Source: Clostridia bacterium
Lineage (GTDB): Bacteria > Bacillota > Clostridia > Christensenellales > CAG-314
Direction of reading: 5' to 3'
DNA: 44,310 bases
Assembly (NCBI GenBank): GCA_036654455.1
Contig: JAVVRZ010000006.1
Coordinates: forward strand, 1 to 44,310
The notes beneath the pieces were generated by a model. That model ran no database searches. It was not told the origin of the DNA and was given only the letters and a program-made list of their open reading frames with translations. Positions 10,394 to 36,868 of this stretch are shown one piece after another. Position numbers and translations under genes: made by a program. Each line of letters opens with the position of its first letter. The first letter of the stretch is position 1.

Positions 10394-10442
10394 TAGTACT
10401 TAACTAGCTAAGATTTTACACTTATTCTAGCATAGAAACTAA

Positions 10443-10480
10443 GTTAATACTGGGGCATTTAATATGCCCCAGTACTTAAC
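10443..10480 (+). terminator. Intercistronic hairpin between oppA and oppB
   Basis: GTTAATACTGGGGCAT (10443-10458) pairs with ATGCCCCAGTA plus TTAAC (10464-10480, one bulged C), leaving a five-base loop. There is no T-run behind it, so it is more likely an mRNA-stabilising or processing element than a full terminator. Confidence 0.75.
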
Positions 10481-10484
10481 CGAA

Positions 10485-10554
10485 AAGCTATATTTGTTTT
10501 ACTTATGTCGCTAGAAATTTAAGCTATATTTGCATTACCTATGTCGCTAGAAAT
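10485..10554 (+). repeat. Two tandem copies of a 34-bp element before oppB
   Basis: Copies at 10485-10518 and 10521-10554 share AAGCTATATTTG and ATGTCGCTAGAAAT and differ at three bases between these blocks, with a 36-bp period. They lie between the hairpin and the oppB ribosome site and do not encode anything. Their function is unknown; they could be a duplicated operator or simply a local duplication. Confidence 0.75.
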
Positions 10555-10603
10555 AACGTTATAGGCAATGTAAATAAATTAAAATAACTATAGGAGAAAT
10601 ACG

Positions 10604-11629: not shown

Positions 11630-13188
11630 TGAACTCACAAGATATGAAGACAACTGTAATCGCCAAAGAGAAGTTTCAATTTGCTCAACTTGGCGATAGA
11701 TTAAGCGACAAAAAGTTAGAAACTAAGCCGGTAGGGTATCTTAAAGATGCTCTTATAAGATTTAGAAAGAATAAATCTTCGGTTATAGCCGCATTTATAA
11801 TTGCCTTTTTGGTATTGTTTGCAATCGTTGCGCCTATGATATCGCAATACACCTTGCAAGATAAAGACTTAGTTTATCAAACAAAGCGTCCTTATGCGGC
11901 AATTTTTGCACCCCTTGGTTTTTGGGACGGTGGCTATAATAATATGAAGAACGAAAGCGACTATTTATTTGAACACGCTAAGTTTATAGAAACCGGACAC
12001 AACCCAATAATTGCGCTACACAAAGAGATTACCGAAGAAGTTGAGGTGATAGTTAACGGCGTTCCTCAAAAAATTACGAGAAAGAATTACGATGTAAGAA
12101 TTGACTCGTATCACGAGGTTGGCATAATAATGAAGAACTTGTCAGCCGCCGAATACGAGCAAGTACAGGCTTATCAAGATGCGACAGGCAGACAAATAAT
12201 TTATCCTTTGGTTAACAAGACTCTACTTAATGGTAGAGACGAGACCGTTGGCGGACCAAACTATTGGTATTGCGTTGATAAATTAGGCAAACCCGAACTT
12301 GACAAAGATGGCAACTTTATCCCTGCGTATTTGGACAAGACTAAGCCCGGACAAAGCAGAACTGATAATTATACTAGTCAACGTATCAAAGGCGACGTAG
12401 GCAATTATGTTTATGCAGAGCTAAACCAATCCGGTTACAGTACTCGTATATGCTATTATGAATATTACATCTATATTAATGGCTACGCTCCAACTTACTT
12501 ATTTGGCACGACTAGCTTAGGACAAGATTTATTCTGCGCAATAGGTCAAGGCGCAAGATTTTCACTTATGCTCGCTATTGTAGTATCGGCGCTTAACTTA
12601 ACAATCGGCGCAATTTATGGCGCAATTGAAGGTTATTACGGTGGCGCTATCGATATGATATTAGAAAGGGTTTCGGACGTCTTGTCGGGTGTGCCGTTTA
12701 TGGTCGTAGCGACCTTATTCCAGATGCACTTGGCTGAAAAGGTAGGCGTAGTCGTCAGCTTCCTGTTTGCTTTCGTAATGACGGGGTGGATAGGTATGGC
12801 GTCGTTAGTACGTAAGCAATTTTATAGGTTTAAAGGACAAGAATATATCTTAGCCGCTAAATCATTAGGAGCGGGAGATTTTAGAATAATGTTTAAGCAC
12901 ATTTTCCCCAACTCGCTAGGCACTATTATAACAAGTTGCGTACTTGTAATACCGGGTGTAATTAGTAGTGAAACGATGATGACTTATTTAGGCATAGTAG
13001 ACCTAAGCGGTACAAACAATACCAGTATTGGCACATTACTTGCGCAAGGTAACACTTATTTAACATCTGCGCCACACGTATTGTTCTGGCCTTCGCTATT
13101 CCTAGCTTTACTGTTAATAACATTTAACTTGTTTGGTAACGGTCTAAGAGATGCGTTCAACCCATCATTAAGAGGAGCGGAGGACTAA
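11629..13188 (+). CDS. oppC: Peptide ABC transporter permease OppC/DppC with large extracytoplasmic insertion
   Basis: A 519-residue permease, against about 300 normally. The OppC N-terminal domain and first helix (about 48-72) are followed by an extra stretch of about 165 residues before the usual G-T-T-S-L-G-Q-D-L motif (from about residue 293; H-x-L-G-T-D-x-x-G-R-D in most family members). The insertion is hydrophilic and rich in Y, N, D and K, and by topology lies outside the membrane. The five C-terminal helices and the EAA loop L-A-A-K-S-L-G-A-G-D-F-R-I-M-F-K-H are intact, so the protein should be functional. An outer-face insertion could contact the enlarged OppA. Confidence 0.9.
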   Translation: MNSQDMKTTVIAKEKFQFAQLGDRLSDKKLETKPVGYLKDALIRFRKNKSSVIAAFIIAFLVLFAIVAPMISQYTLQDKDLVYQTKRPYAAIFAPLGFWDGGYNNMKNESDYLFEHAKFIETGHNPIIALHKEITEEVEVIVNGVPQKITRKNYDVRIDSYHEVGIIMKNLSAAEYEQVQAYQDATGRQIIYPLVNKTLLNGRDETVGGPNYWYCVDKLGKPELDKDGNFIPAYLDKTKPGQSRTDNYTSQRIKGDVGNYVYAELNQSGYSTRICYYEYYIYINGYAPTYLFGTTSLGQDLFCAIGQGARFSLMLAIVVSALNLTIGAIYGAIEGYYGGAIDMILERVSDVLSGVPFMVVATLFQMHLAEKVGVVVSFLFAFVMTGWIGMASLVRKQFYRFKGQEYILAAKSLGAGDFRIMFKHIFPNSLGTIITSCVLVIPGVISSETMMTYLGIVDLSGTNNTSIGTLLAQGNTYLTSAPHVLFWPSLFLALLLITFNLFGNGLRDAFNPSLRGAED

Positions 13189-13191
13189 ACA

Positions 13192-15360
13192 ATGGAAAAG
13201 AAATTACAAGTAAAGAATTTAAAAATATCGTTTAGAACAAGCAATGGCAAAGTGCAAGCTGTTCGTGACGTTAGTTTTGACCTCAACAAAGGCGAAACAC
13301 TCGCCATAGTTGGCGAGAGTGGTAGCGGTAAATCTGTTACCAGTAGAGCAATCTTAGGCATACTTGCAAACAACTCTATTATTGAAGATGGCGAGATATT
13401 CTACGACGGTCAAGACTTACTTAAAATAACCGAAGACGACTTCCATAAGATAAGAGGCGACAAGATAGCTATGATTTTCCAAGACCCTATGTCGAGTCTT
13501 AACCCGGTTGTGCGTATCGGCAAACAACTAACTGAGGCAATGTTACTCAAAAACAAGGCAAGCAGAAGAAACAGCCGTAGAGATTTCCACGAGAAAATGA
13601 ATTTACTGTTGAAATGCACTAACCTTGCTATGGGCGCTCAAACTAATAAAGAAGTATCAGCGGCAAACAGCGCAAAAGTTAAAAAGTTTAACAAATTTGA
13701 ACTTAAACATATCCAATTAGAGGCGTCGTACAATATTGCTCACGAAGCTGCAAAAGAAGGGTTAGAAGACGTAGAAGAGTTAATCCTTCAAATACCCAAG
13801 CTTGCAGTAGTTAATATTGTAAAAGAAGTTCAAAGCATAGTCAAAAAGTCAGTTCTTGCAATTAACCCCTTTGTGGTAATCAATGGCGAGGAAATGAACG
13901 CTTTGTCAACTCAGCTAACCGAGCTTGCCGAGTTACACAAAAAAGACAAACTATTTGACGATATTATGCCAATCGCAAAGCAAATTAAAACTTTGCTAGA
14001 TAACGCTTTGGCGTTAGAACAACCAAACTTTTTTGCGCTAGGTTACTATTTAACTTTTGTAGACGGCGTAGTTCCTGAAAAAGCAAGCATAGCTCAACTC
14101 AATGCAGAAATGAGAAAAGTTCTTGACGACGAGTTTATGATTGACTTTATCGCTACAATGGAGAATGGTATTAAATACTCTTTCCAAAAATCACTAGAAG
14201 AAAAGAAAAACGTAGTTAAATTACTTAGCGAACAAATTGCGATATTTGACAAATCTGGTTTTACCAAAAAAGACGCAAACGATGCTTTCAAACTTATGTT
14301 TAAAGCAGTTAGCTTATCGCTAGATAGATTGCAAATTATTAAAGACAGCCTTGCTTATACCTTTAAGTCGTCTTTAAAAAGCGCAATCGACAACTACTTT
14401 GTAGCTATTAAGAAGAACGCTACCGAAGTTGTTAGATTTAATAAACAAACTGCAAAGAAGAACAAGGCTGAGGCAAGGGGCAAGGAAGTTAGCTGGACGG
14501 TAGTTCCAGCCGACGTAAAAGACCTTGACGTAATGAAAGACCATATTAAACGCATTATCAACAACCTTATCGCTCACTATTCTAAGGCAGAAGATAACGC
14601 CGAACATTATGACGCTAACGCAACGGCAATCGACCTAATAGACTTCTTTAAGACTATGTCGTCGGCAATGGTTTATAAAGTAACGCCCACAATGGCAAAT
14701 AATACTGCCCTTAAACTAATGGAAGAAGTTGGTATACCCGAAGCTCGCAAGAGATTTAGACAATATTCTTTCCAATTCTCAGGCGGTATGAGACAGCGTA
14801 TTGTTATCGCTATCGCTTTGTCGGCTAACCCCGATATCTTGATTTGCGACGAACCTACAACTGCGCTAGACGTTACAATCCAAGCTCAAATTCTTGAATT
14901 AATCAATGACCTTAAACGTGAAAGGCATTTGTCGGTTATCTTTATTACCCACGACTTAGGCGTCGTAGCTAATATGGCAGACCGCATAGCCGTTATGTAT
15001 GCAGGCAAAATTGTAGAATATGGCACAGCAGAAGACGTTTTCTACAACCCCAGACACCCTTATACTTGGGCTTTGTTGTCTTCAATGCCCGACCTTGACA
15101 CAAATGAAAAGTTGGACGCTATACCCGGCACGCCTCCAAATATGATTTACCCGCCACTTGGCGACGCATTTGCAGAAAGGAATAAATACGCTATGCAAAT
15201 TGACTTTGAGGAGCAACCTCCAATGTTCCAAATCAACGAAACGCACTATGCCGCTACGTGGCTATTGCATCCGGACGCTCCAAAAGTTGACCCGCCTAAG
15301 GCTGTTACAGACAGAATTGCCCGTATGAAGAAGTTAGGAGGCGCTAGTGATGGAAAATAA
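13192..15360 (+). CDS. oppD: Peptide ABC transporter ATPase OppD split by a 370-residue insertion
   Basis: A 722-residue ATPase, about twice the usual 330. Walker A G-E-S-G-S-G-K-S is at 41-48 and the Q-loop M-I-F-Q-D-P-M-S-S-L at 94-103. The signature F-S-G-G-M-R-Q-R starts only at 529, followed by Walker B I-L-I-C-D-E-P and the H-loop I-T-H-D. The Q-loop-to-signature distance is about 430 residues instead of about 65, so about 370 residues are inserted in the helical subdomain. The insert is K/E/A/L-rich and predicted helical, with no recognised domain. The C-terminal oligopeptide region is present, but the cysteines of the usual C-P-F-x-x-R-C-P motif are replaced (D-A-F-A-E-R-N-K-Y-A-M), so the Fe-S cluster known in some Dpp ATPases is not expected. 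It begins three bases after oppC ends, with AGGAGCGGAGG ahead of the start. Confidence 0.92.
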   Translation: MEKKLQVKNLKISFRTSNGKVQAVRDVSFDLNKGETLAIVGESGSGKSVTSRAILGILANNSIIEDGEIFYDGQDLLKITEDDFHKIRGDKIAMIFQDPMSSLNPVVRIGKQLTEAMLLKNKASRRNSRRDFHEKMNLLLKCTNLAMGAQTNKEVSAANSAKVKKFNKFELKHIQLEASYNIAHEAAKEGLEDVEELILQIPKLAVVNIVKEVQSIVKKSVLAINPFVVINGEEMNALSTQLTELAELHKKDKLFDDIMPIAKQIKTLLDNALALEQPNFFALGYYLTFVDGVVPEKASIAQLNAEMRKVLDDEFMIDFIATMENGIKYSFQKSLEEKKNVVKLLSEQIAIFDKSGFTKKDANDAFKLMFKAVSLSLDRLQIIKDSLAYTFKSSLKSAIDNYFVAIKKNATEVVRFNKQTAKKNKAEARGKEVSWTVVPADVKDLDVMKDHIKRIINNLIAHYSKAEDNAEHYDANATAIDLIDFFKTMSSAMVYKVTPTMANNTALKLMEEVGIPEARKRFRQYSFQFSGGMRQRIVIAIALSANPDILICDEPTTALDVTIQAQILELINDLKRERHLSVIFITHDLGVVANMADRIAVMYAGKIVEYGTAEDVFYNPRHPYTWALLSSMPDLDTNEKLDAIPGTPPNMIYPPLGDAFAERNKYAMQIDFEEQPPMFQINETHYAATWLLHPDAPKVDPPKAVTDRIARMKKLGGASDGK

Positions 15361-16573
15361 TAATGAAATTTTACTCAAAGTAGAACATTTATGTCAATAC
15401 TTTAAGATGGGACCAGGATTTGAACTTAAAGCTGTAAATGACATTAGCTTTAACATCAAAAAAGGCGAAGTTTTCGGGCTAGTTGGCGAGTCTGGTTGCG
15501 GTAAAACAACTACGGGTCGTTCAATTATGAAGTTATACGACGCTACGTCGGGTAACGTTTATTTCAAGGGCGAAAGAATTGTAGCAGGGACACGTTCTTA
15601 TCAAAACGCTATCAAAACGGCAAAAAATGACTTTAAGGCTTTTTGCAAAACTTCTACCGATAAACTTGAAATAGAGAAAAAGAGAGCCGAAACCGAAAAA
15701 ATAGTTTTAGCCCAAAGACAACTTATCAAAGAGGCTAGATTTGACCATCTAAATTGCGATAAAGTTTATTCTCGCAAATTAGTTGACAAATTAAACGACG
15801 AATACCTACCTCAAATTGATGCCGCTCAATCTGATGCCGAAAAAGCTAAGCTAACCACCGAATATAAAGAAAAAGTTAGACTAGCTAAGAAAGAAAGATT
15901 GATTAACGAAATTCAAATGATTTTCCAAGACCCAATAGCTTCTCTTGACCCTCGTATGACGGTTAGAGATATTATATCCGAAGGTTTAATTATCAAAGGC
16001 GTTAAGGACAAAAAGTATATAAACGACCAAGTCAACACAGCGCTTGAACAAGTTGGCCTTGTGCGTGAACACGCCGATAGATATCCCCACGAATTTAGTG
16101 GCGGTCAACGACAAAGAATAGGCGTAGCTCGTTCAATCATTATGCGCCCCGAGCTAATCGTCGCCGACGAACCTGTTTCTGCGCTAGACGTTTCTATACA
16201 AGCGCAAGTTATCAACCTTTTAAACGACCTAAGGAAAGAATTAGGGCTAACAATTATGTTTATTGCCCACGACTTGTCGGTTGTTAAGTACTTCTCAAAT
16301 AGAATTGCAGTTATGTACTATGGCAATTTGGTTGAGTTAACTACTTCAAACGAGTTATTCTTAAATCCTTTACACCCATACACTCGTTCCTTGTTATCGG
16401 CAATACCTCTTCCAGACCCAATCTATGAGAAGACTAGAAAGAGAATTGTCTATAATCCTATCGCAGACCACGATTACACAAAAGAAAAACCAATTTTAAG
16501 AGAAATCAAAGAAGGGCATTTTATCTTGTGTAACACTGAGGAGTTTGAAAGATACAAGAAGGAATTAAAGTAA
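15350..16573 (+). CDS. oppF: Peptide ABC transporter ATPase OppF with a 90-residue insertion
   Basis: The second ATPase of the transporter. Walker A G-E-S-G-C-G-K-T is at about 46-53, the Q-loop M-I-F-Q-D-P at about 190, F-S-G-G-Q-R-Q-R at about 249 and Walker B I-V-A-D-E-P at about 270, so all catalytic motifs are present. The distance from Walker A to the Q-loop is about 140 residues instead of about 55 because of a K/E-rich helical insertion (about 80-184). This is a different site from the OppD insertion. The C-terminal tail lacks the usual cysteine motif. I place the start at ATG 15350, eight bases after AGGAGG (15336-15341); an in-frame GTG at 15347 is the alternative. It overlaps oppD by 11 bases. 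Confidence 0.92.
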   Translation: MENNNEILLKVEHLCQYFKMGPGFELKAVNDISFNIKKGEVFGLVGESGCGKTTTGRSIMKLYDATSGNVYFKGERIVAGTRSYQNAIKTAKNDFKAFCKTSTDKLEIEKKRAETEKIVLAQRQLIKEARFDHLNCDKVYSRKLVDKLNDEYLPQIDAAQSDAEKAKLTTEYKEKVRLAKKERLINEIQMIFQDPIASLDPRMTVRDIISEGLIIKGVKDKKYINDQVNTALEQVGLVREHADRYPHEFSGGQRQRIGVARSIIMRPELIVADEPVSALDVSIQAQVINLLNDLRKELGLTIMFIAHDLSVVKYFSNRIAVMYYGNLVELTTSNELFLNPLHPYTRSLLSAIPLPDPIYEKTRKRIVYNPIADHDYTKEKPILREIKEGHFILCNTEEFERYKKELK

Positions 16574-21136: not shown

Positions 21137-21166
21137 TTGACAAAATAAGTTACAATATAGTATAAT
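21137..21166 (+). promoter_or_regulatory. Sigma-A promoter of the kal-kam operon
   Basis: A perfect TTGACA (21137-21142), an 18-base spacer and a perfect TATAAT (21161-21166). Transcription should begin near 21173, shortly before the riboswitch P1 helix. Confidence 0.85.
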
Positions 21167-21180
21167 ATAAATATAATTAA

Positions 21181-21352
21181 ATACATAGAGGAGCGAGTAA
21201 CAAGGTATAACTTAACTTGGGCTGCAACCCCCGATAGTTAGTTAGAATATGCTGCTTGCCGAAGGCTAGCAGTTTGTTGCGACTGTTCGTCTGGTAACAA
21301 TACTTAGGGTGTTGTTACTGTCAATTTAACAGATAGTTAGTTGAAGCGCTAT
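21181..21352 (+). promoter_or_regulatory. Lysine riboswitch (L box) in ON geometry
   Basis: The five-way junction can be drawn by hand. P1 is 21185-21188 with 21349-21352; P2 base 21193-21201 with 21251-21259; P3 21263-21273 with 21282-21292; P4 21294-21303 with 21309-21318 (10 pairs); P5 21321-21330 with 21336-21344. Conserved L-box blocks are visible: AGAGGAGCG, GCCGAAG after P2, CTGG after P3 and ACTGTCA after P4. The P2 interior is shorter than in classical members. The 3' arm of P1 (CTAT) is also part of the following terminator, so ligand-stabilised P1 and the terminator exclude each other and lysine should allow read-through. This fits control of lysine breakdown rather than synthesis. 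Confidence 0.87.
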
Positions 21353-21392
21353 TAGAGAATTTTACATTCTTTAATAGCTTTTTGTATTTTTT
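21348..21392 (+). terminator. Riboswitch expression platform: intrinsic terminator
   Basis: GCTATTAGAGAAT (21348-21360) and ATTCTTTAATAGC (21366-21378) form 13 pairs (one G-U) around TTTAC, followed by TTTTTGTATTTTTT. It overlaps the P1 3' strand at 21349-21352. The kal ribosome site AGGAGGAG starts directly behind at 21393. Confidence 0.9.
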
Positions 21393-21407
21393 AGGAGGAG
21401 TTTTAAT

Positions 21408-21791
21408 ATGAAATGTACAATCAGGCTAAGAATGAGCGCTCATGATGCGCATTATGGCGGTAATCTAGTTGACGGAGCAAGAATGCTTGCTTTGTTCGGC
21501 GACGTTGCTACCGAACTACTCATTAGACAAGACGGCGACGAAGGTTTGTTCTGCGCTTATGACAACGTAGAATTTAAAGCCCCAGTTCACGCCGGCGACT
21601 TTATTGAGGCGGAAGGCGAAATTGTCAATGTCGGCAGAACAAGCCGTAAAATGACATTTGCCGCTTATAAAATAATCACTCCAAGAAACGACATCAACGA
21701 TTCGGCTTGCGACGTGTTAGAAACGCCTATTCTTGTTTGCAAAGCCTCAGGTACTTGCGTAGTTCCGCTCGACAAACAAAGAAACAAATAG
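21408..21791 (+). CDS. kal: 3-aminobutyryl-CoA ammonia-lyase
   Basis: A 127-residue hotdog-fold protein with the length and start typical of Kal ([21 protein letters not shown]). It removes ammonia from L-3-aminobutyryl-CoA to give crotonyl-CoA, the last step specific to lysine fermentation. The family is a thioesterase-like hotdog turned lyase; the H-x-x-Y-G-G segment and the central hotdog helix with D-G-A-x-M-L-x-L-F-G-D-V-A-T are clear. It is the first gene after the lysine riboswitch, with a strong AGGAGGAG eight bases upstream of ATG. A 138-base gap with only a weak 6-bp hairpin (21812-21827) separates it from kce. Confidence 0.92.
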
Positions 21792-21929: not shown

Positions 21930-22748
21930 ATGGATAAATTAATTATTACAGCCGCAATTTGTGGCGCAGAAGTAACTAAGGAACAAAATTCCGCAGTTCC
22001 CTATACCGTAGCAGAAATTGCCGAGCAGGCTTATGGCGCATACCAAGCCGGCGCAAGCATAATTCACCTACACGTAAGAGAAGACGACGGTTCTCCAACG
22101 CAATCGGCTAAGCGTTTCGACGCTTGCATCAAGGCTATTAAGGCAAAGTGTCCCGACGTTATCATTCAACCTAGCACAGGCGGAGCAGTTGGTATGAGCA
22201 ATGACGAAAGATTAGAGCCTATTACCCTTATGCCCGAGATGGCAACTCTTGATTGTGGCACTTGCAACTTTGGCGGAGACGATATATTTGTCAACACCGA
22301 AAACACTATTATTGAATTTGCCGAAAAAATACAAGCAAGACATATTAAACCCGAAATTGAAGTTTTTGACAAAGGTATGGTTGATATTGCTTTAAGACTC
22401 AACAAAAAAGGCATTATCGCTTCTCCTATGCACTTTAACTTTGTTATGGGCGTAAACGGCGGTATCGGCGCAACTCCTCGTGACCTAGTATTTATGGCTG
22501 GCAGTATTCCGCAAGGCAGTACTTTTACAGTGTCGGGCGTAGGCAAAGGACAATTTCCAATGGCTACAATGTCAATACTACTCGGCGGTAACGTAAGAGT
22601 TGGCTTTGAAGATAACGTATATTTAGAAAAAGGCGTTAAAGCAAAGAGCAATGGCGAATTAGTAGCAAAAGTAGTAGCTATCGCTAAATTACTCGGCAGA
22701 GAAATTGCAAATCCAGCCGAAGCAAGAGCGATATTAAATTTAAAATAA
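21930..22748 (+). CDS. kce: 3-keto-5-aminohexanoate cleavage enzyme
   Basis: A 272-residue TIM-barrel enzyme of the BKACE (DUF849) family. It condenses 3-keto-5-aminohexanoate with acetyl-CoA and splits it into acetoacetate and L-3-aminobutyryl-CoA. The zinc ligands His46 and His48 are seen in I-I-H-L-H-V-R, and the substrate-binding segment Q-P-S-T-G-G follows at about 80. The C-terminal V-G-F-E-D-N region carries the conserved Glu. Length and motifs match Kce of Fusobacterium and Acetoanaerobium rather than other BKACE members, and the neighbours settle the substrate. AAGAGGT precedes ATG. Confidence 0.93.
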   Translation: MDKLIITAAICGAEVTKEQNSAVPYTVAEIAEQAYGAYQAGASIIHLHVREDDGSPTQSAKRFDACIKAIKAKCPDVIIQPSTGGAVGMSNDERLEPITLMPEMATLDCGTCNFGGDDIFVNTENTIIEFAEKIQARHIKPEIEVFDKGMVDIALRLNKKGIIASPMHFNFVMGVNGGIGATPRDLVFMAGSIPQGSTFTVSGVGKGQFPMATMSILLGGNVRVGFEDNVYLEKGVKAKSNGELVAKVVAIAKLLGREIANPAEARAILNLK

Positions 22749-22797: not shown

Positions 22798-23835
22798 ATG
22801 AGAGGAAACAAGTATGGCGCGCACAGAGTTATTGAACCCGTAGGAATTCTACCACAGGCTGCGAAAAAACTCGATAACGATATGACAAAATTATACAGCA
22901 ATGAGATTATTTGCGACGTTATTTCGTTAAATATTGACTCGGCTAGTTTTACCCAAATTAAGAATGAGGCAAACGGCGACGAGCAAAAAATAGCTGACAA
23001 GGTTTGTGAAATTGTTGGCGGTATTGGCAAAATGCAAAACCCCGTTACAGGCAGTGGCGGTATGTTTATAGGTAAGGTCGCTTATATAGGTCAAGACCTA
23101 GTAGAAAAGAGCGGACTAAAAGTTGGCGATAAGATTGCTTCCTTAGTATCTTTGTCAACTACTCCCTTAAAAATTGAAAAAGTTCTCGCAGTACATACGG
23201 CGATAGAAAGAGTTGACGTTATAGCTAAGGCAGTTTTATTCGAAAGCGCAATTTATGCAAAACTTCCTAGCGATATGAGCGAAAACCTAGCTCTTGCAGC
23301 TCTTGACGTAGCAGGCGCTCCCGCTCAAACAAGAAACCTTGTTAAAAAAGGCGACAGCGTATTAGTACTTGGCGCAGGCGGAAAGAGTGGCGTTCTTGTT
23401 TGCTATGAAGCAAAAAAGAAAGCCGGAAAGAACGGCAAAGTAGTAGCTGTTGTTCGCAAACAAGAGTATGTAGACACCCTTAAAGAACTCGGCGTAATCG
23501 ACGACGCAGTACTTGCAAGCGCAACTATGCCTACCGAAGTGCTTGAAAAAGCCTTAGCAGTTAACGATGGCAAAGAATATGATATTTCTATCAACTGCGT
23601 AAATATTCCTAACACCGAAATGTCAACAATTCTACCCGTAAGAGATGGCGGTATTGTTTACTTCTTCTCAATGGCTACAAGCTTTACAAGAGCAGCGCTT
23701 GGCGCAGAGGGTATTGGCAAAGACGTTACTATGATTATTGGTAACGGTTACACCAAAAACCACGCCGACATCACTCTCGACGTATTAAGAGAGAGTCCTA
23801 AGATTCGTGAGTTATTCGAGAAAAAATATATCTAA
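22798..23835 (+). CDS. kdd: L-erythro-3,5-diaminohexanoate dehydrogenase
   Basis: A 345-residue NAD(P)-dependent oxidative deaminase converting 3,5-diaminohexanoate into 3-keto-5-aminohexanoate with release of ammonia. The N-terminus (G-A-H-R-V-I-E-P-x-G-x-L-P-Q-A-A) is distinctive of Kdd. The nucleotide-binding loop V-L-V-L-G-A-G-G-K-S-G-V is at about 182-194, in an MDR-like Rossmann domain. The order kal-kce-kdd is the reverse of the chemical order, as in other lysine fermenters. AAAGGAG lies upstream of the start. No truncation or altered motif was seen. Confidence 0.93.
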   Translation: MRGNKYGAHRVIEPVGILPQAAKKLDNDMTKLYSNEIICDVISLNIDSASFTQIKNEANGDEQKIADKVCEIVGGIGKMQNPVTGSGGMFIGKVAYIGQDLVEKSGLKVGDKIASLVSLSTTPLKIEKVLAVHTAIERVDVIAKAVLFESAIYAKLPSDMSENLALAALDVAGAPAQTRNLVKKGDSVLVLGAGGKSGVLVCYEAKKKAGKNGKVVAVVRKQEYVDTLKELGVIDDAVLASATMPTEVLEKALAVNDGKEYDISINCVNIPNTEMSTILPVRDGGIVYFFSMATSFTRAALGAEGIGKDVTMIIGNGYTKNHADITLDVLRESPKIRELFEKKYI

Positions 23836-23862: not shown

Positions 23863-25113
23863 ATGAATATAAGTAGAGCTAACGGTTTGTTTGCTTCTGT
23901 GAAAGACGAGCTTTGGAACGACTGGCATTGGCAAATACAACACCGTGTTGAGACTCTTGATGAGCTAAATAAATACATCACTCTTACAAAAGAGGAACAA
24001 GTTGGGGTTAGTAAGTGCCTTTCTACGCTTAGAATGGCAATTACGCCATATTATCTGTCCTTAATAGATTTAAAGAATTCGTTTGACCCTATTAGACGTC
24101 AGGCAATACCCACAGTTGACGAATTACATCGTAGCGAAAGCGACTTGCTCGACCCTTTGCACGAAGACGTAGATTCGCCGGTTAAAGGGTTAACTCATAG
24201 GTATCCCGATAGAGTGCTATTTTTGCTTACAGACCAATGTTCTATGTATTGCAGGCATTGTACTCGCAGGCGTTTTGCAGGTCAAACCGACAGTCCTTGC
24301 TTAGACAATCAAATAGATAACTGTATAGAGTATATTGCCACTCATAAAGAAGTTCGTGACGTATTGCTTTCTGGCGGTGACCCATTAACGCTAAGCGACG
24401 ACAAATTAGAAAGCGTTATTAAGCGTTTGCGGGCTATTCCTCACGTAGAAATTATTAGAATAGGTTCTCGTGTTCCCGTAGTTTTGCCACAAAGAATTAC
24501 GCCCGAATTATGCGCTATGCTTGCAAAGTATCACCCGATATGGCTTAACACTCACTTTAATCACCCTAACGAGATTACTGCCGAGTCAAGCAAGGCTTGC
24601 GCTATGCTCGCTAATGCCGGTATTCCGCTAGGTAACCAAAGCGTTCTACTTGCAGGCGTAAACGATTGCGTGTTTGTTATGAAGGAACTTGTACAGCAAC
24701 TTGTAAGAATTCGTGTTCGCCCGTACTACATCTATCAATGCGACTTGTCAATGGGGCTTGAACACTTCCGCACCTCAGTTTCTAAGGGAATTGAGATAAT
24801 TGAAGCGTTAAGAGGGCATACTTCGGGCTTTGCCGTACCAACATTTGTTGTAGACGCCCCCGGTGGCGGTGGTAAAATTCCGGTTATGCCAGACTATGTT
24901 ATTTCAAGTTCGGCAAATAAAGTTATACTTAGAAACTTCGAAGGCGTTATTACAACTTATGCCGAACCGACAAACTATCACCAAGATTGTCACTGTAAAG
25001 TATGTCAAAGCGGTAACAAACCTAAACTGGTAGGCGTCGCCGGACTAGAACAAGGACAAACGCTATCTATTGCTCCGTCAAATCTTGCAAGAGAGCAACG
25101 ACACAAAAAATAG
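23863..25113 (+). CDS. kamA: Lysine 2,3-aminomutase (radical SAM, PLP)
   Basis: A 416-residue enzyme that turns L-lysine into L-beta-lysine, the entry step. The radical SAM motif is C126-S-M-Y-C130-R-H-C133. The PLP lysine is K338 in G-G-G-G-K-I-P-V-M-P. The C-terminal C-H-C-K-V-C supplies the zinc ligands known from the clostridial enzyme. The N-terminus W-N-D-W-H-W-Q-I-Q-H-R-V is the usual KamA signature, distinguishing it from EpmB and from the glutamate and arginine mutases. Both cofactor sites are intact. AGAGAGGGG precedes the start. Confidence 0.96.
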   Translation: MNISRANGLFASVKDELWNDWHWQIQHRVETLDELNKYITLTKEEQVGVSKCLSTLRMAITPYYLSLIDLKNSFDPIRRQAIPTVDELHRSESDLLDPLHEDVDSPVKGLTHRYPDRVLFLLTDQCSMYCRHCTRRRFAGQTDSPCLDNQIDNCIEYIATHKEVRDVLLSGGDPLTLSDDKLESVIKRLRAIPHVEIIRIGSRVPVVLPQRITPELCAMLAKYHPIWLNTHFNHPNEITAESSKACAMLANAGIPLGNQSVLLAGVNDCVFVMKELVQQLVRIRVRPYYIYQCDLSMGLEHFRTSVSKGIEIIEALRGHTSGFAVPTFVVDAPGGGGKIPVMPDYVISSSANKVILRNFEGVITTYAEPTNYHQDCHCKVCQSGNKPKLVGVAGLEQGQTLSIAPSNLAREQRHKK

Positions 25114-25145: not shown

Positions 25146-26708
25146 ATGAAAAGTAAACTTAATTTAAATCAAAATTTGGTAAATCAAGCTCGGCAATCTG
25201 CTATGCGGGTTGCCGAACACACCCAACAGTATATCGACTTGCACTCTACCCAAACGGTAGAGCGCGCGGTATGCCGTTTGCTTGGCATTGACGGAGTTAA
25301 CGAAGTAGGCGTTCCTATGCCTAACATCGTCGTCGACCACCTTGCAAACAACAATCACTTAGCTATGGGCGTAGCGTACTACTTAGGCTGTTCGTTACTC
25401 GAAAATGGCCTTAGTCCGCAACAAACCGCCGAAGCAATTAACAAGGGTAAACTCGATTTGTCGAGAGTTAAACCTCGTGAGATAGGCGAAGTTAGAAAGG
25501 CAATCTTTGATATTGCCCGACAGACAATGAAGCGTATTGACGCTAACGTTGCTAAACGCAAAGAATATTTAACAAAATTTGGCGAAAAAGACGGTCCTTA
25601 CATCTATTTGATTGTAGCGACAGGTAATATTTACGAAGACATTACGCAGGCAAAAGCCGCCGCAAAGCAGGGAGCTGACATTATTGCAGTTATCCGCACG
25701 ACGGGGCAAAGCTTGCTTGACTATGTTCCTTATGGAGCGACTATCGAAGGTTTCGGCGGTACTTATGCAACGCAAGAGAACTTCCGCTTAATGCGTTCGG
25801 CATTAGACGAAGTCGGCGAGGAGCAAAAGAGATATATTAGACTATGCAACTATTGTTCGGGACTATGTATGCCCGAAATTGCCTCAATGGGCGCATTAGA
25901 AAGGCTTGACGTTATGCTTAACGATGCGCTATATGGTATTTTATTTAGAGATATCAATATGAAGCGTACTATTGTCGACCAATATTTTTCTAGGGTAATC
26001 AATGGCTACGCAGGCGTGATAATAAATACAGGCGAGGACAACTACTTAACCACAGCCGACGCCGTAGAAGAAGCGCATACTGTGCTTGCCTCGCAATTTT
26101 TAAACGAACAATTCGCTCTTAAAGCCGGGCTACCCGAAGAACAAATGGGCTTAGGTCACGCTTTTGAGATTGACCCAGAGGTAAAAAATGGCTTTGTATA
26201 CGAATTAGCCCAAGCTCAAATGGCTAGGGAAATATTTCCCAAAGCGCCCCTTAAATATATGCCACCAACAAAGTTTATGACGGGCAATATTTTTAGAGGA
26301 CATATTCAAGACGCTTTATTTAATATGGTTACAATTCTTACCGGACAAAAAATACATTTGCTAGGTATGATGACTGAGGCTATTCATACTCCATTTATGG
26401 CAGACCGAGCCTTAGCTATTGAAAACGCTCAATATATTTTCAACACTATGAGCGATTTAGGCAACGAGATTACTTTTGCTAAGGGCGGATTAGTCGAACA
26501 GAGGGCTAACGAAGTTCTAACTAAGGCAACCGACCTACTTCAAGAGATTGAGAAGCTTAAATTGTTTGGCACGCTAGAAAAAGGTATATTTGCCTCAATA
26601 AAGCGGTCGCAAGACGGCGGAAAAGGGCTTAACGGCGTATTTAGCAAGGGAGAGAAATATTTCAACCCCTTTATCGAGCTTATGCTTACAAATAAGGAGG
26701 GCAAATAA
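25146..26708 (+). CDS. kamD: Lysine 5,6-aminomutase alpha subunit
   Basis: A 520-residue TIM-barrel subunit of the adenosylcobalamin- and PLP-dependent mutase that moves the 6-amino group of beta-lysine to carbon 5, giving 3,5-diaminohexanoate. The N-terminus (Q-A-R-x-x-A-x-R-V-A-x-H-T-Q-Q-Y-I), the R-T-T-G-Q-S-L-L-D-Y-V-P segment and the long barrel match KamD in length and order. The ribosome site (AAGAG) is weaker than in the neighbours. The kamE start directly abuts its stop (TAAATG), which suggests coupled synthesis of the two subunits. Confidence 0.95.
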   Translation: MKSKLNLNQNLVNQARQSAMRVAEHTQQYIDLHSTQTVERAVCRLLGIDGVNEVGVPMPNIVVDHLANNNHLAMGVAYYLGCSLLENGLSPQQTAEAINKGKLDLSRVKPREIGEVRKAIFDIARQTMKRIDANVAKRKEYLTKFGEKDGPYIYLIVATGNIYEDITQAKAAAKQGADIIAVIRTTGQSLLDYVPYGATIEGFGGTYATQENFRLMRSALDEVGEEQKRYIRLCNYCSGLCMPEIASMGALERLDVMLNDALYGILFRDINMKRTIVDQYFSRVINGYAGVIINTGEDNYLTTADAVEEAHTVLASQFLNEQFALKAGLPEEQMGLGHAFEIDPEVKNGFVYELAQAQMAREIFPKAPLKYMPPTKFMTGNIFRGHIQDALFNMVTILTGQKIHLLGMMTEAIHTPFMADRALAIENAQYIFNTMSDLGNEITFAKGGLVEQRANEVLTKATDLLQEIEKLKLFGTLEKGIFASIKRSQDGGKGLNGVFSKGEKYFNPFIELMLTNKEGK

Positions 26709-27494
26709 ATGTCAGGTTTATACGACTTATCTAAAAAAAGTACTAATACCACGCTTGACACTAAGCAACTATGCCCTTATGGCGACACAATTAACGACTC
26801 AAAAGTGCAGATTAGCTTTACTTTGCCTATTCCAAACAATGCAAAGGGCAACGAGGCAGCGGCTCTCTACGCAAAGAAGATGGGTATTGCCGAGCCAAAC
26901 GTAGCTTATGCAAGGGCGCTTGACGATAATTTTACCTTTTATGTAGTTTATGGCAGTTGCGTTCATACAATTAATTATGACGAGATAGTAGCGCTAGACG
27001 TTACAAGCGACGTTATGGATATGCGTCAAGTCGACGAATATATCGAGCGTAATATCGGCAGGAAAGTTGTAGTTTTAGGCGCTTCAACAGGTACGGACGC
27101 TCATACCGTAGGTATAGACGCTATTATGAACCGCAAAGGTTTTGCCGGTCACTATGGTCTAGAAAGATATAATATGATTGAGGCTATCAATATGGGTAGC
27201 CAAGTTGCAAACGAAGACTTTATCAAAAAAGCAAGGGAAGTTAAAGCCGATATTTTGCTTGTTTCTCAAACAGTTACGCAAAAAAATATTCATATTGCAA
27301 ATTTAACCGAATTAGTCGAGCTACTAGAAGCCGACAATTTACGCAAAGACGTTGTTTTAATTTGTGGCGGAGCAAGAATTAACCACGAATTAGCCAAAGA
27401 GCTTGGCTATGACGCCGGTTTTGGTTCGGGCAAATTTGCCGAAGACGTTATTTCCTTTGCCGTACAAGAAATGGTCTCACGCAAACTTTTTTAA
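26709..27494 (+). CDS. kamE: Lysine 5,6-aminomutase beta subunit (B12- and PLP-binding)
   Basis: A 261-residue partner of KamD. The cobalamin motif T-D-A-H132-T-V-G supplies the lower axial histidine. The lysine in N-R-K143-G-F-A-G-H-Y-G corresponds to Lys144 of the Acetoanaerobium sticklandii enzyme, which binds PLP. The C-terminal G-G-A-R-I-N-H-E-L-A and G-F-G-S-G segments complete the Rossmann-like B12 domain. AAGGAGG (26694-26700), inside the end of kamD, drives its translation. This enzyme is the presumed client of KamB/KamC encoded upstream. Confidence 0.95.
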   Translation: MSGLYDLSKKSTNTTLDTKQLCPYGDTINDSKVQISFTLPIPNNAKGNEAAALYAKKMGIAEPNVAYARALDDNFTFYVVYGSCVHTINYDEIVALDVTSDVMDMRQVDEYIERNIGRKVVVLGASTGTDAHTVGIDAIMNRKGFAGHYGLERYNMIEAINMGSQVANEDFIKKAREVKADILLVSQTVTQKNIHIANLTELVELLEADNLRKDVVLICGGARINHELAKELGYDAGFGSGKFAEDVISFAVQEMVSRKLF

Positions 27495-27504
27495 GGAGAA
27501 AAAT

Positions 27505-28899
27505 TTGACCAACAAAATTGACCAGCAACTAATCGAAGGACAAGAAGTTAACAATGTCGACCGACAAAATCAAACAAATCAAGACGACGTCGGCAATTCA
27601 AACAGTCCAAAACTGCCTAACGTACTGAGAAATAAAAATTTCTTATTGCTTTTTTTAGGCACGCTTGTTTCTAACGTAGGCAATACATTTTATAGTTTTG
27701 TAGTAAGTTTTTACATTTTAGCTATCACTAATAACAACGCCATTATTCAAGGAGCCTTTCTTGCGACTTGTGGCGTTGTCTTTTTATTGTTTTCGACAGT
27801 AGGCGGAGTGCTTGCCGATAGATACAACAAAGCTAAAATAATTTATATTTGTGATTTTATAAAGGGCGGAATTATTATTATTTCGGCAGTTGTAATTTAT
27901 TTTTGTATTGCAAACGATATGGTTATTCTGCAAATAGTAGTTTTATTTATAATGGGCATAGTCAGTAACATTATTGGCGCAATTTTTTCGCCTGCGACTT
28001 CAAGTTTGACGCCTTATATTGTAAAACCTATGCAACTTCAACAGGCTAACAGTTATTTTAGCGTTTTAAATTCCTTGCAAGGCATAGTAGGTATTTTAAT
28101 TGCCGGCATAATTTATTCCATATTACCGATAATGTGGTTATTTGTTTTAATAGGTATCCTATACGTTTTAAGCGGAATTTCGGAAATATTTATAAGATAC
28201 GACTTTGTTAAGAAAGAAGGGACGATTACTATTAAAAATGTATTTGCCGACTTTGTTCAAGGGATAAGATATCTTAAACCTGAAAAAGCCCTTGTTGGCT
28301 TAATAATGGGCATACTCTTTGTAAATTTCTTTTTAACGCCTTATATGTCTAACGGAGCGCCGTATTTTATTAAGACTTATTTAAACGGCGAATATTTATT
28401 AAGTAGCGTAGTCAAGCCTGAAATGTGGCAGTCAATTTGGTCAGTTTGTGTTGGAGCAGGTTCGCTTATTATGGGTTTGATTGTATCGCATAAAGCGCAA
28501 AAGGCAAAATATGGCAAATCTATTAAGCTGTGGATGTTGCTTATGGCTGTTGCAATGACGATAGCGCCGATTAGTTTTTACATATTTGTATATACAAAGT
28601 TAAGCGTTTCGGCTTATCTAATAATAACCAGTTGTTTGCTATTTTTCTTTGGATTGTCGGTAGTTAATATTAATATTCCCGTCGCTACGATTATACAATC
28701 TAGGGTAGATAAAGATATGCTAGCTAAGGTTTCTAGCGTGCTTAATATTGGCTCAATGGGGTTGACTCCAATAGCCTCAATGTTAGGCGGAGTTATTATA
28801 GGACTATTAGGACTAGGCGCAGTATTAATTTTTTGTTCGGTAGGGTTTTTATTTACGGCGATATTGATTTCGTCAAATAAGTCGATAAATTCCTTATAA
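27505..28899 (+). CDS. MFS transporter at the end of the lysine operon
   Basis: A 464-residue major facilitator with about 12 membrane helices, starting after a hydrophilic N-terminus of about 40 residues rich in Q, N and D. Helix 2-3 loop G-G-V-L-A-D-R-Y-N-K is the MFS motif A, and the overall pattern resembles the MFS_3 (macrolide/enterobactin exporter-like) group. The start is TTG 27505, six bases after AAGGAG (27493-27498); the frame is open further upstream into kamE but that extension has no ribosome site. It is the last gene before the shared terminator, so it is probably lysine-induced. Import of lysine or export of a fermentation amine or acid are both possible; the substrate is not determined. 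Confidence 0.8.
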   Translation: MTNKIDQQLIEGQEVNNVDRQNQTNQDDVGNSNSPKLPNVLRNKNFLLLFLGTLVSNVGNTFYSFVVSFYILAITNNNAIIQGAFLATCGVVFLLFSTVGGVLADRYNKAKIIYICDFIKGGIIIISAVVIYFCIANDMVILQIVVLFIMGIVSNIIGAIFSPATSSLTPYIVKPMQLQQANSYFSVLNSLQGIVGILIAGIIYSILPIMWLFVLIGILYVLSGISEIFIRYDFVKKEGTITIKNVFADFVQGIRYLKPEKALVGLIMGILFVNFFLTPYMSNGAPYFIKTYLNGEYLLSSVVKPEMWQSIWSVCVGAGSLIMGLIVSHKAQKAKYGKSIKLWMLLMAVAMTIAPISFYIFVYTKLSVSAYLIITSCLLFFFGLSVVNINIPVATIIQSRVDKDMLAKVSSVLNIGSMGLTPIASMLGGVIIGLLGLGAVLIFCSVGFLFTAILISSNKSINSL

Positions 28900-28939: not shown

Positions 28940-28970
28940 AAAAACCTAAAACAATATGTTTTAGGTTTTT
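28940..28970. terminator. Bidirectional terminator between the lysine and ornithine operons
   Basis: AAAAACCTAAAAC and GTTTTAGGTTTTT (28940-28952 and 28958-28970) pair around AATAT, with A and T runs on both sides. It ends the lysine operon on the plus strand and the ornithine operon on the minus strand. Confidence 0.92.
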
Positions 28971-28995: not shown

Positions 28996-30060
28996 TTAAC
29001 CGTTTATATATTTGCGTTTAATATACTTACTTGTAAATAGGTGTAGAATTGCTCCATAGTTTGCGGTGAATGTCAATTTGTCGCCTACCGCATAAGATTT
29101 AGCGCTGTTTGTAATGTCTACGATTAGATGGTCGGAGCTACTGCCTACTATGCTTATATTCTTGTCGTCGGGAGTTAGCCCGTCGCAAATTGTATCTTGT
29201 CTACCTATGGCAAGTATGGCTCGTTTCATTATGCCTTTATCGATATAGGTCATTTTCTCGCCAAAAGCGTTAATCGATGTTTCCCCGATAGGGTAGCTAG
29301 GTTTTTCGAAAACTTCGATAATCTCGCTTTCAAGTCGTACGCAGTCGTGGAACATATTTGGTATTTGCGTAGAATAGGCAGTTTCGAGTCCCAGTATAAG
29401 CGATTCGCCAAGTCTAAGATTGTTAATTTTGCTAGGCATATTTTTTTCAAGAAGTAGTAGCGAGCTAGAATTGCCACCGCTTACGATTTGCAATTTTTTA
29501 TGATATTTTTCTTCGTAACGATTAGCAAGGTTTGCAAGTACGTTCATATTGTCGTTACTTGGTAACACCGAACCATAGCACGTAAGGTTTGCGCCAATTC
29601 CCGCAAGAAATAAGTTGCTACATAGCTCTACTTGCTGGTAATATGCGTCTATATATTCTAAATTGTCGTACATTACGCCTTCTCTAAGGTCGCCTAAATC
29701 AATCATAAGTAATACGCCGTGCTTTTTATCTTGTTTTTTTGCTTCGTTGTTTAGCAAACTAAGCATTTCTATACAAGAATTACAGCTGATGTCGGCATAT
29801 TTTACCGTCTCTTTAATTTGACTTTTTTGAGGCAACCTAAGCAATATTTTGGTCTTAGAGCTTTTAGCGTAGCTTGCAAGGTTTTCAATTCGTGAGTCGG
29901 CAAAGTACTTACAGTCGGTATTTTCAAGTACGTTTACCATCTTTTTGTCGGCGCAGAACACCTTAGTTACAAATGCAGGATAGCAGTTGTGTTTTTTCAA
30001 TTTTTCAATTAAAAAGTCGGCGTTATGTTTAAATTTTGCTAAATCAATAATAATCGGCAT
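28996..30060 (-). CDS. orr: Ornithine racemase
   Basis: A 354-residue PLP enzyme with the alanine-racemase-type TIM barrel. Lys33 in A-F-V-T-K-V-F-C-A-D is the Schiff-base lysine. The start M-P-I-I-I-D-L-A-K-F-K-H-N-A and the D-S-R-I-E-N-L motif match Orr rather than canonical Alr. It supplies D-ornithine, the substrate of OraSE. It closes the ornithine operon, 60 bases after the reactivase gene, with a hairpin between. AAAGAGGTAAAAAC is its ribosome site. A true alanine racemase of different sequence heads the same operon. Confidence 0.9.
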   Translation of the reverse strand: MPIIIDLAKFKHNADFLIEKLKKHNCYPAFVTKVFCADKKMVNVLENTDCKYFADSRIENLASYAKSSKTKILLRLPQKSQIKETVKYADISCNSCIEMLSLLNNEAKKQDKKHGVLLMIDLGDLREGVMYDNLEYIDAYYQQVELCSNLFLAGIGANLTCYGSVLPSNDNMNVLANLANRYEEKYHKKLQIVSGGNSSSLLLLEKNMPSKINNLRLGESLILGLETAYSTQIPNMFHDCVRLESEIIEVFEKPSYPIGETSINAFGEKMTYIDKGIMKRAILAIGRQDTICDGLTPDDKNISIVGSSSDHLIVDITNSAKSYAVGDKLTFTANYGAILHLFTSKYIKRKYING

Positions 30061-30082
30061 TGTTTTTACCTCTTTTTATAAA

Positions 30083-30110
30083 TTAAACAATCTAAATTAG
30101 GATTGTTTAA
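30083..30110 (-). terminator. Intercistronic hairpin between reactivase and orr
   Basis: TTAAACAATC (30083-30092) and GATTGTTTAA (30101-30110) form a perfect 10-bp A/T-rich stem with an eight-base loop. On the minus strand it is followed by TTTATAAAAA, so it could act as a weak attenuator that lowers orr expression. Confidence 0.6.
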
Positions 30111-30120
30111 AAATTAAAAT

Positions 30121-31476
30121 TTATTTAATTGACAGCGTTTGTTTAAGTAGCTCAATCGCCTCGTCTTTGTGCGTTTTTGCCAGTACTCCTAAACTTGCCA
30201 TAATATAATCGTTGTCAAATAGAATTTGTAATTTGTCCACCTTGGGGAAAAGCATAGTTTTATTTGCGTTGATGTTTGCAAGGTTACGCATAATTTGCTC
30301 TCGGTGGGGTAAACGAGTTAACGCTCCGCCCGAAGCGATTAAATATTTAAGGTCGGTCAAATCTTTACCCTGCGTAAGGGTTTGCCTACCGTTGTTTCCA
30401 AAGATATATCTAATTGAGCCTGCGTGACGAGTCAAAGCAATTTTGCCTGCTTGAAGGGTAAGTTCTTCGACAAGTTCGATTTGTTTGTCGCCTACGGGAA
30501 TTGCTTTATATTCGGCTAGCGTAGTAACGATGTCGAAACCAAGTTTTGCCGATAATTCTTGTTCGCCAAGTAAATCAATTAAGTGTCTAGCGTTGATATA
30601 CACGCCTAAGTCGCCCTCGACCGTTCGCTTGCAGTGAGGTTCTGCCTCGATTGCAAGGCTTGCCATTTCGGCGTTGTCGTCGCAAACAGAGTGAATATCC
30701 GTTGTTGCTCCGCCTATATCGATTACGGCTATATTGCCAAGCAGTTCGCTTGCAAGCATTGCGCATTCCATAACTGCGCCCGGAGTAGGTATGATGTTAC
30801 CGCTTACAAGTTTGCGAATATGCTCCATACCTTGCGCCTTAACTATATTTTGTTCAAAAGTCGAGTGAATAACTTTGCGAGTCGGCTCGATGCAAAGGTT
30901 GTCAAGCTGAGGATAAACATTGTCTACAATTTTGCAAGATTTGCCTGCGTCCTCAAAAATTTGGGCTATTTGACCGTCTAAGGCTTTGTTTCCGGCATAA
31001 ACAATAGGGCAGGGCAAATCTGCCTTAGCGAGCAATTCGGCGTTATAGAGCGGTACTTCGGTTGCGCCGTAGTCCGTTCCGCCTGCTAGAAGAATTAGGT
31101 TTGGCTTAGTTTTAATAATTTGCCCTAAGTCGTACTGACTTAATTTGCCTGCGGTTAGCAGTTTAATTATTCCGCCTGCGCCAAGAGCGGCTTCTTTTGC
31201 CGCCCTAACCGTCATTTCGTAAACAAGTCCATGCACCGTCATTTTTAGTCCGCCTGCGGCAGAACTCGTGGCGAGCATTTCTTTGTAGGTGACTTTTTCG
31301 CCTAGCGTCTTTGCAAGGCTATCGATTGCATTGTTTAAGCCAATACAAACGTCGCCTTGCTCGACAGTAGTAGGGGCAAAGCCCTGACCAATAAATTTGG
31401 GCTTTGCTCCTAACATAAAAGCGTTGATTAAAGTTGTGGTTGAGCCGATTTCGGCTACAAGACAATCTATTTTCAT
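30121..31476 (-). CDS. GlmL/MutL-type aminomutase reactivase, ASKHA ATPase
   Basis: A 451-residue protein of the GlmL/MutL family, related to actin/Hsp70-fold reactivases. The phosphate-1 loop is A-E-I-G-S-T-T-T near the start, with L-L-A-G-G-T-D-Y-G in the centre and V-I-D-I-G-G-A-T-T-D as phosphate-2. Such proteins associate with cobalamin-dependent glutamate mutase and ornithine aminomutase and are thought to exchange inactivated cofactor. Its start overlaps the oraE stop as ATGA, so it is made with its presumed client. The family differs completely from KamB/KamC, which would serve the lysine mutase in this genome. A proven symbol is not available. Confidence 0.87.
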   Translation of the reverse strand: MKIDCLVAEIGSTTTLINAFMLGAKPKFIGQGFAPTTVEQGDVCIGLNNAIDSLAKTLGEKVTYKEMLATSSAAGGLKMTVHGLVYEMTVRAAKEAALGAGGIIKLLTAGKLSQYDLGQIIKTKPNLILLAGGTDYGATEVPLYNAELLAKADLPCPIVYAGNKALDGQIAQIFEDAGKSCKIVDNVYPQLDNLCIEPTRKVIHSTFEQNIVKAQGMEHIRKLVSGNIIPTPGAVMECAMLASELLGNIAVIDIGGATTDIHSVCDDNAEMASLAIEAEPHCKRTVEGDLGVYINARHLIDLLGEQELSAKLGFDIVTTLAEYKAIPVGDKQIELVEELTLQAGKIALTRHAGSIRYIFGNNGRQTLTQGKDLTDLKYLIASGGALTRLPHREQIMRNLANINANKTMLFPKVDKLQILFDNDYIMASLGVLAKTHKDEAIELLKQTLSIK

Positions 31477-33689: not shown

Positions 33690-33691
33690 TA

Positions 33692-34054
33692 TTATTTGTC
33701 CTCCTTAAATAATTCTTCGGCTACTTGCCAGTATTTACCGGTAAGAAGTTCTAGCCCTGCCTCTCTAACATTTTTGTTGAGGTGCTTTGCCAAGCGGTAA
33801 ATAACATTGCCTACGCCAAAGCCGATTAAGTTGTGTTCGATAGCGCTATTTACAAGAGGTTTAGCTTCTAGGGAAGAAAAACCCATACGTAGTAGAACTG
33901 AACGCTCAATCGACGGCGTTGTATTTTCATAGCCAAGTTTGATAAGCGGGTCGACAAGGTCGCCGGTTAGCTTCCAAAAATAGTCTTCCAACTGCTTATC
34001 GGTTAAATCTGCAAGATGAGCTCGTCTTGTAGCGTAATCGTCGGCTCTTTTCAT
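33692..34054 (-). CDS. oraS: D-ornithine 4,5-aminomutase subunit S
   Basis: A 120-residue small subunit required for OraE activity. The sequence K-R-A-D-D-Y-x-x-R-R-A-H-L-A-x-L-T-D-x-Q-L at the start and the R-M-G-F-S-S-L-E-A segment are characteristic of OraS, and the length matches. It has no cofactor motif, as expected. Its ATG overlaps the ortB stop (ATGA) and is preceded by AAGGAG. The tight order ortB-oraS-oraE suggests stoichiometric production. Confidence 0.94.
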   Translation of the reverse strand: MKRADDYATRRAHLADLTDKQLEDYFWKLTGDLVDPLIKLGYENTTPSIERSVLLRMGFSSLEAKPLVNSAIEHNLIGFGVGNVIYRLAKHLNKNVREAGLELLTGKYWQVAEELFKEDK

Positions 34055-35753: not shown

Positions 35754-35765
35754 ATCTATACCGCC

Positions 35766-36836: not shown

Positions 36837-36868
36837 ATCAATAACTCCTTTGTCTATAATATTTTTTA

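What the first reader, a model, noticed from the sequence alone, without database searches (positions are those of the whole stretch)
21181..21392. Lysine riboswitch in ON geometry driving a lysine-fermentation operon
The L-box aptamer can be folded by hand and its P1 3' strand is shared with the terminator's first arm, so ligand binding should block termination. Most characterised lysine riboswitches turn biosynthesis or import genes OFF. Here the regulated genes degrade lysine, so the reversed logic makes sense. ON-type L boxes ahead of catabolic genes have been suggested before; the concept may not be new, but this instance is detailed and the P2 interior looks shortened.
Basis: partly seen in the sequence, partly recalled or inferred. 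Interest (0 to 1): 0.72.

Follow-up and report, generated by a model that had tools for sequence, protein, structure and literature searches.

The report
Lysine-activated riboswitch before lysine-fermentation genes
Upstream of the genes this anaerobe uses to ferment lysine lies a lysine-sensing RNA switch built to turn them on when lysine is plentiful; this use of the switch was already known, but it belongs to a recognisable branch of lysine riboswitches whose tertiary contact differs from that of the usual OFF type.

Summary
RF00168 matches window 21178-21359 with 65.2 bits, E 6.5e-15. A consensus promoter lies upstream (21137-21166). The terminator 21348-21378 has the P1 3' strand as its first arm. 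It precedes kal-kce-kdd-kamA-kamD-kamE, the lysine-fermentation operon. It is the genome's only L box, and lysA was not found.

ON logic is strongly supported by comparison. The P1 3' strand lies in the terminator's first arm in 28/37 L boxes ahead of kal, against 0/59 ahead of asd, lysA, dapA or transporter genes in the same order. ON-type lysine riboswitches before kal/kce are already in the literature (PMC5584792, PMC2258182), so the principle is not new.

What I did not find described: kal L boxes form one aptamer branch (37/38 in an exclusive clade, modest support 0.63). Their P2 bulge is one base shorter (GGUA, not AGUA) and their L4 loop is not NAANA (3/38 kal against 111/118 others). 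These are the two partners of the L4-P2 tertiary contact, while the ligand-binding core is unchanged. No lysine binding or regulation has been measured.

The parts
21137..21166 (+). promoter: TTGACA, 18-nt spacer, TATAAT; transcript start inferred near 21173
   Evidence: 12 of 12 consensus matches; start point inferred
21178..21359 (+). lysine riboswitch aptamer (L box)
   Evidence: RF00168, 65.2 bits, E 6.5e-15, full model length
21185..21188 (+). P1 5' strand (AUAG)
   Evidence: Rfam alignment and pair list
21203..21207 (+). P2 asymmetric bulge, 5' side AGGUA (kal-type)
   Evidence: ordinary L boxes have AUNAGUA
21245..21249 (+). P2 asymmetric bulge, 3' side GAAUA (kal-type)
   Evidence: ordinary L boxes have GAAAGG
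21224..21228 (+). L2 half of a possible kissing loop, GCAAC
   Evidence: complementary to 21276-21280, read by eye; inferred
21276..21280 (+). L3 half of a possible kissing loop, GUUGC
   Evidence: complementary to 21224-21228, read by eye; inferred
21304..21308 (+). L4 loop UUAGG, not the NAANA pentaloop of ordinary L boxes
21349..21352 (+). P1 3' strand (CUAU), shared with the terminator's first arm
21348..21392 (+). intrinsic terminator: 13-bp hairpin 21348-21378 plus U tract to 21392
21393..21399 (+). ribosome-binding site of kal (AGGAGGA), outside the terminator hairpin
   Evidence: sequence
21408..21791 (+). kal, 3-aminobutyryl-CoA ammonia lyase
   Evidence: NF052388, 199.2 bits, cutoff 160
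21930..22748 (+). kce, 3-keto-5-aminohexanoate cleavage enzyme
   Evidence: NF052387, 442.5 bits, cutoff 382
22798..23835 (+). kdd, L-erythro-3,5-diaminohexanoate dehydrogenase
   Evidence: NF052381, 254 bits, cutoff 200
23863..25113 (+). kamA, lysine 2,3-aminomutase
   Evidence: TIGR03820, 617.8 bits, cutoff 525.4
25146..26708 (+). kamD, lysine 5,6-aminomutase alpha subunit
   Evidence: NF052384, 907.1 bits, cutoff 600
26709..27494 (+). kamE, lysine 5,6-aminomutase beta subunit
   Evidence: NF052385, 378.6 bits, cutoff 280
27403..28899 (+). MFS transporter (mechanical ORF; true start probably after the end of kamE)
   Evidence: PF07690
28940..28970 (+). probable terminator at the end of the operon

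Best explanation
This is a transcriptional ON lysine riboswitch. RNA polymerase starts near 21173 and makes the aptamer. Without lysine, the weak P1 does not hold, and the CUAUUA strand becomes the first arm of a 13-bp hairpin that stops transcription at the U tract (21379-21392). With lysine, the five-way junction closes and P1 locks that strand away as the aptamer emerges. Only a short A/U-rich hairpin then remains, about six nucleotides from the U tract, so polymerase reads through into kal-kce-kdd-kamA-kamD-kamE. Shown here: aptamer homology, shared strand, gene content, and specificity of this geometry to kal leaders. Inferred: lysine as the ligand, the direction of regulation in the cell, and the timing. 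The large energy gap in favour of the terminator means that the switch must act during transcription. The aptamer belongs to a kal-associated branch with altered P2 bulge and L4 loop but an unchanged binding core.
For: Rfam hit. Shared strand. Ligand-free leader predicted to form the terminator at probability at least 0.97, with P1 at 0.00; before the terminator's second arm is made, P1 is at 0.01-0.02. Terminator form is 12.6 kcal/mol below the P1 form with the aptamer helices kept, and 15.5 below it unconstrained. Overlap of the P1 3' strand with the terminator's first arm: 28/37 kal against 0/59 non-kal. A further 59 non-kal L boxes across the phylum gave two hits at the threshold, before dapB and lysA; by inspection the compact terminators of both lie further downstream. 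P1 partners fit their own strand better than swapped ones (7 of 5000 permutations reach the observed value; not corrected for relatedness). Four genomes hold a kal L box and an ordinary L box, and only the kal one has the overlap; in two of the four the other box has a separate terminator, and in two none was found. The binding-core columns GAGGNGC, GCCGAA, UGG and CUGNC are at least 90% the same in both groups. The genome has no lysA match and no other L box.
Against: No binding, probing or expression data. P1 in the window is only four contiguous pairs, among the weakest of the set. 9 of 37 kal leaders do not show the direct shared-arm terminator in this scan; six related leaders suggest a two-hairpin route. 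Energies come from a secondary-structure model without tertiary contacts or kinetics. The start site is inferred from a consensus promoter. lysA absence is by one profile in a genome estimated 95% complete.
Confidence: 0.87

Rival explanations
1. It is an ordinary OFF lysine riboswitch: lysine promotes termination, as ahead of asd, lysA or lysC.
For: That is the rule for non-kal L boxes of the same order, whose terminators lie 3' of the P1 strand.
Against: The terminator's first arm contains the P1 3' strand, so P1 and terminator exclude each other. No downstream element was seen that could invert this. The genes degrade lysine.
Confidence: 0.04
2. The switch is ON, but the aptamer of this branch has changed ligand, for example to beta-lysine or another intermediate of the pathway.
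For: The branch is distinct, with four otherwise conserved positions changed and a different L4. The regulated pathway makes beta-lysine and 3,5-diaminohexanoate.
Against: All four changed positions lie in the P2 bulge and L4; the junction motifs that make the binding pocket are unchanged.
Confidence: 0.05
3. A constitutive or decayed leader: the aptamer no longer binds, and the terminator only attenuates the operon.
For: 65 bits is at the low end of L boxes in the order; P1 is weak.
Against: Core motifs are intact, and the shared arm is retained together with its partners in relatives. Other kal L boxes score 44-113 bits.
Confidence: 0.04

Closest known systems
ON-type lysine riboswitches ahead of kal/kce (Clostridium sticklandii, Fusobacterium nucleatum, Thermoanaerobacter; PMC5584792 section 13)
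   Same: Same aptamer family, same target genes, same proposed direction of regulation
   Different: New organism and a full kal-kce-kdd-kamADE operon. That paper's section gives neither the shared-arm geometry nor an aptamer subtype
[quoted passage not shown] subtilis lysC, own knowledge; asd and lysA in this order)
   Same: Five-helix aptamer and binding-core motifs
   Different: Terminator lies beyond the P1 3' strand; P2 bulge AUNAGUA/GAAAGG; L4 NAANA pentaloop
Adenine and glycine ON riboswitches (PMC2258182; C. difficile gcv glycine switch, PMC11477304)
   Same: Ligand binding buries part of a terminator stem
   Different: Different ligand and aptamer

Membership tests
Lysine riboswitch (RF00168) | Covariance-model score above the gathering cutoff over the full model | tested here: met
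   65.2 bits against 30, positions 1-182
Lysine riboswitch (RF00168) | Conserved five-way junction motifs that form the binding pocket | tested here: met
   GAGGAGC, GCCGAA, UGG, CUGUC and J5/1 GAAGCGC present
Lysine riboswitch (RF00168) | L2-L3 kissing interaction | tested here: inconclusive
   GCAAC 21224-21228 and GUUGC 21276-21280 are complementary by eye; across L boxes matched L2/L3 complementarity only moderately exceeds swapped pairs, and the script did not score the window
Lysine riboswitch (RF00168) | Canonical L4-P2 loop-helix contact: L4 NAANA with A and G of the P2 bulge (PMC3764141) | tested here: not met
   L4 UUAGG and bulge AGGUA/GAAUA. A peripheral feature that nearly all kal members lack, so it marks a variant and does not exclude membership
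Lysine riboswitch (RF00168) | Specific binding of L-lysine | not testable with these tools
   Needs in-line probing or calorimetry
Transcriptional ON riboswitch | Aptamer helix and terminator share a strand and exclude each other | tested here: met
   P1 3' strand 21349-21352 lies inside terminator arm 21348-21360
Transcriptional ON riboswitch | More read-through with ligand | not testable with these tools
   Needs single-round transcription or RNA-seq with and without lysine
kal-type L-box branch (proposed here) | G before GUA in the P2 bulge, no NAANA L4, grouping with kal aptamers in the tree | tested here: met

The most novel reading that the evidence does not exclude
Lysine riboswitches that activate lysine fermentation are a distinct aptamer subclass of largely single origin. 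They replaced the canonical L4-P2 tertiary contact while keeping the lysine pocket, plausibly tuning affinity or folding speed to the high lysine levels at which degradation should start. The subclass travelled with kal instead of arising repeatedly from local OFF switches.
Probability: 0.45. Interest if true: 0.6.

Novelty: new variant of a known kind. Interest (0 to 1): 0.45.

Why it matters
The ON logic itself was already proposed. What is added is a test showing that platform geometry follows gene function almost without exception, and that the aptamer changed along with the logic, in a tertiary contact remote from the ligand. Genomes holding both types would let one ask directly how the same pocket is tuned for repression in biosynthesis and for activation in degradation.

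Tried and rejected
A kal scan of viral contigs found nothing. The first protein and DNA alignments used the wrong strand for minus-strand loci and were discarded. A first terminator scan merged antiterminator and terminator folds in non-kal leaders and was replaced by a compact-hairpin scan. Two apparent non-kal overlaps, L209 (lysA) and L241 (dapB), were rejected by inspection: compact terminators lie downstream. Regular-expression counts of core motifs without alignment were replaced by column comparison. MAFFT shifted the window by about two bases within the P2 bulge, so its bulge bases were read from the sequence and instead. Rodionov 2003, the likely first description, is not held and could not be read. 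Translational control was considered and set aside: the AGGAGGA site lies outside the terminator hairpin.

Full report
What is there. The window holds one Rfam match, the lysine riboswitch RF00168 at 21178-21359 on the plus strand, 65.2 bits, E 6.5e-15, over the full model. A perfect TTGACA-18-TATAAT promoter lies at 21137-21166. The leader ends in a 13-bp hairpin at 21348-21378 followed by a U tract, then AGGAGGA and the kal start codon at 21408. The genes downstream are kal, kce, kdd, kamA, kamD and kamE, each above the NCBIfam equivalog cutoff, then an MFS transporter and a probable terminator at 28940-28970. The genes kamB and kamC lie just upstream. In the whole genome (1.37 Mb, about 95% complete) this is the only L box; dapA is present and lysA was not found. 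A cell that ferments lysine and may not make it has no need for the OFF type.

Geometry. P1 is AUAG 21185-21188 with CUAU 21349-21352. Those same 3' bases lie in the first arm of the terminator. In the free leader the terminator pairs have probability 0.97 or more and P1 is at 0.00; before the second arm is made, P1 is at 0.01-0.02. The terminator form is 12.6 kcal/mol below the form with P1 when the aptamer helices are kept in both, and 15.5 below it unconstrained. Lysine must therefore act before the second arm (ending at 21378) is made. With P1 formed, only an A/U-rich 8-bp hairpin is left, about six bases from the U tract. These are model energies without tertiary contacts.

Comparison within the order. 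Of 151 genomes, 95 have RF00168 and 10 have a genuine kal; in 8 of those 10 an L box lies ahead of it. A named collection gave 80 kal loci, of which 29 have an L box directly upstream, mostly Clostridia plus one Anaerolineaceae. I compared 37 kal L boxes with 59 others from the window's order: 35 before asd, 11 before a Na+/H+ antiporter-family gene, 7 before an amino-acid binding protein, and 6 others including lysA and dapA. The P1 3' strand lies in the terminator's first arm in 28/37 kal and in 0/59 others. A phylum-wide sample added 59 non-kal leaders and one kal leader; the kal one overlaps, and the two non-kal hits at the threshold are scan artefacts by inspection. P1 5' strands fit their own P1 3' strand better than those of other species (7 of 5000 permutations reach the observed value). 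The matching statistic for the terminator arm is partly built in, because the terminators were found by folding.

The exceptions. Six kal leaders of Clostridium type (L055, L068, L075, L078, L102, L116) put the P1 3' strand in a hairpin with no clear U tract, followed by a separate terminator; the scan scored L055 as overlapping and the other five as not. The freed 3' arm of the first hairpin is complementary to the terminator's first arm in all six (-7.3 to -11.3 kcal/mol, shuffled means -3.0 to -4.2). That suggests a two-step route to the same ON logic. It is an inference from six related sequences. The other four exceptions (L069, L072, L096, L111) were not resolved.

A branch of aptamers. 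In a tree of aptamers with P1 removed, 36 of 37 kal boxes form one exclusive clade against 59 others (support 0.84), and 37 of 38 against 118 others (support 0.63; two label changes against about 34 in shuffles). Without P1 and P2, 33 kal and one other group together (support 0.90). The alignments are short and support is modest, so single origin is likely, not proven. Of 34 positions at least 90% conserved in ordinary L boxes, the kal majority differs at four: two in the P2 bulge and two in L4. The base before GUA in the bulge is G in 35/38 kal and A in 72/73 others that have GUA. The usual bulge is AUNAGUA/GAAAGG; kal boxes have AGGGUA/GAAGGG or AGGUA/GAAUG, and the window AGGUA/GAAUA. L4 has NAANA in 111/118 others and in 3/38 kal. 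In the T. maritima crystal structure, A127 of L4 contacts A23 and G69 of P2 and joins the two (PMC3764141); by my numbering these are the first A and the last G of the bulge strands. Both sides of one tertiary contact have thus changed together, while the binding-core columns have not. Four genomes carry both types, and each type keeps its own bulge and loop.

What is known. Barrick and Breaker (PMC2258182) write that certain lysine riboswitches have ON logic and bury parts of terminator stems, citing Rodionov 2003. Mukherjee and colleagues (PMC5584792) list lysine riboswitches ahead of kal and kce and call them positively regulated. The principle is therefore known, and I found no experimental test of a natural case in the papers searched. 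Barrick and Breaker also note variants lacking the kink-turn. I found no description of the kal-associated bulge and L4, but Rodionov 2003 could not be read.

Verdict. A real lysine riboswitch in ON geometry, of a known kind, belonging to an apparently undescribed structural branch. Ligand, direction and any tuning remain to be measured.

Noticed in passing
L179, L180, L059, L079, L053, L062, L056, L071, L086, L088 (kal leaders of relatives): In 10 of 37 kal leaders (1 of 59 non-kal) the end of the aptamer ([UC]G[GA][AU]GNRCUAU) is repeated downstream, each copy starting its own terminator; L086 has three. P1 could move from copy to copy, giving serial checkpoints. Several of the ten are close relatives. 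The window has a single copy.
   Followed up: partly
L055, L068, L075, L078, L102, L116: Clostridium-type kal leaders have an anti-P1 hairpin and a separate terminator whose first arm is complementary to the hairpin's 3' arm: a possible two-step ON switch.
   Followed up: partly
window 28996-39278, minus strand: Ornithine and arginine degradation genes next to the lysine operon: Orr-like ornithine racemase, GlmL-like protein, oraE, oraS, ortB, 2,4-diaminopentanoate dehydrogenase, arginine deiminase, alanine racemase. No Rfam RNA lies ahead of them.
   Followed up: no
window 7433-16573, plus strand: Oligopeptide ABC transporter genes, fitting an amino-acid fermenter.
   Followed up: no
window 1456-5313, plus strand: Two adjacent EAL-domain proteins with weak GGDEF matches.
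   Followed up: no
L183 (G129) 39 nt after the L box: A 145-aa protein lies between the L box and kal in this genome; its family was not searched.
   Followed up: no
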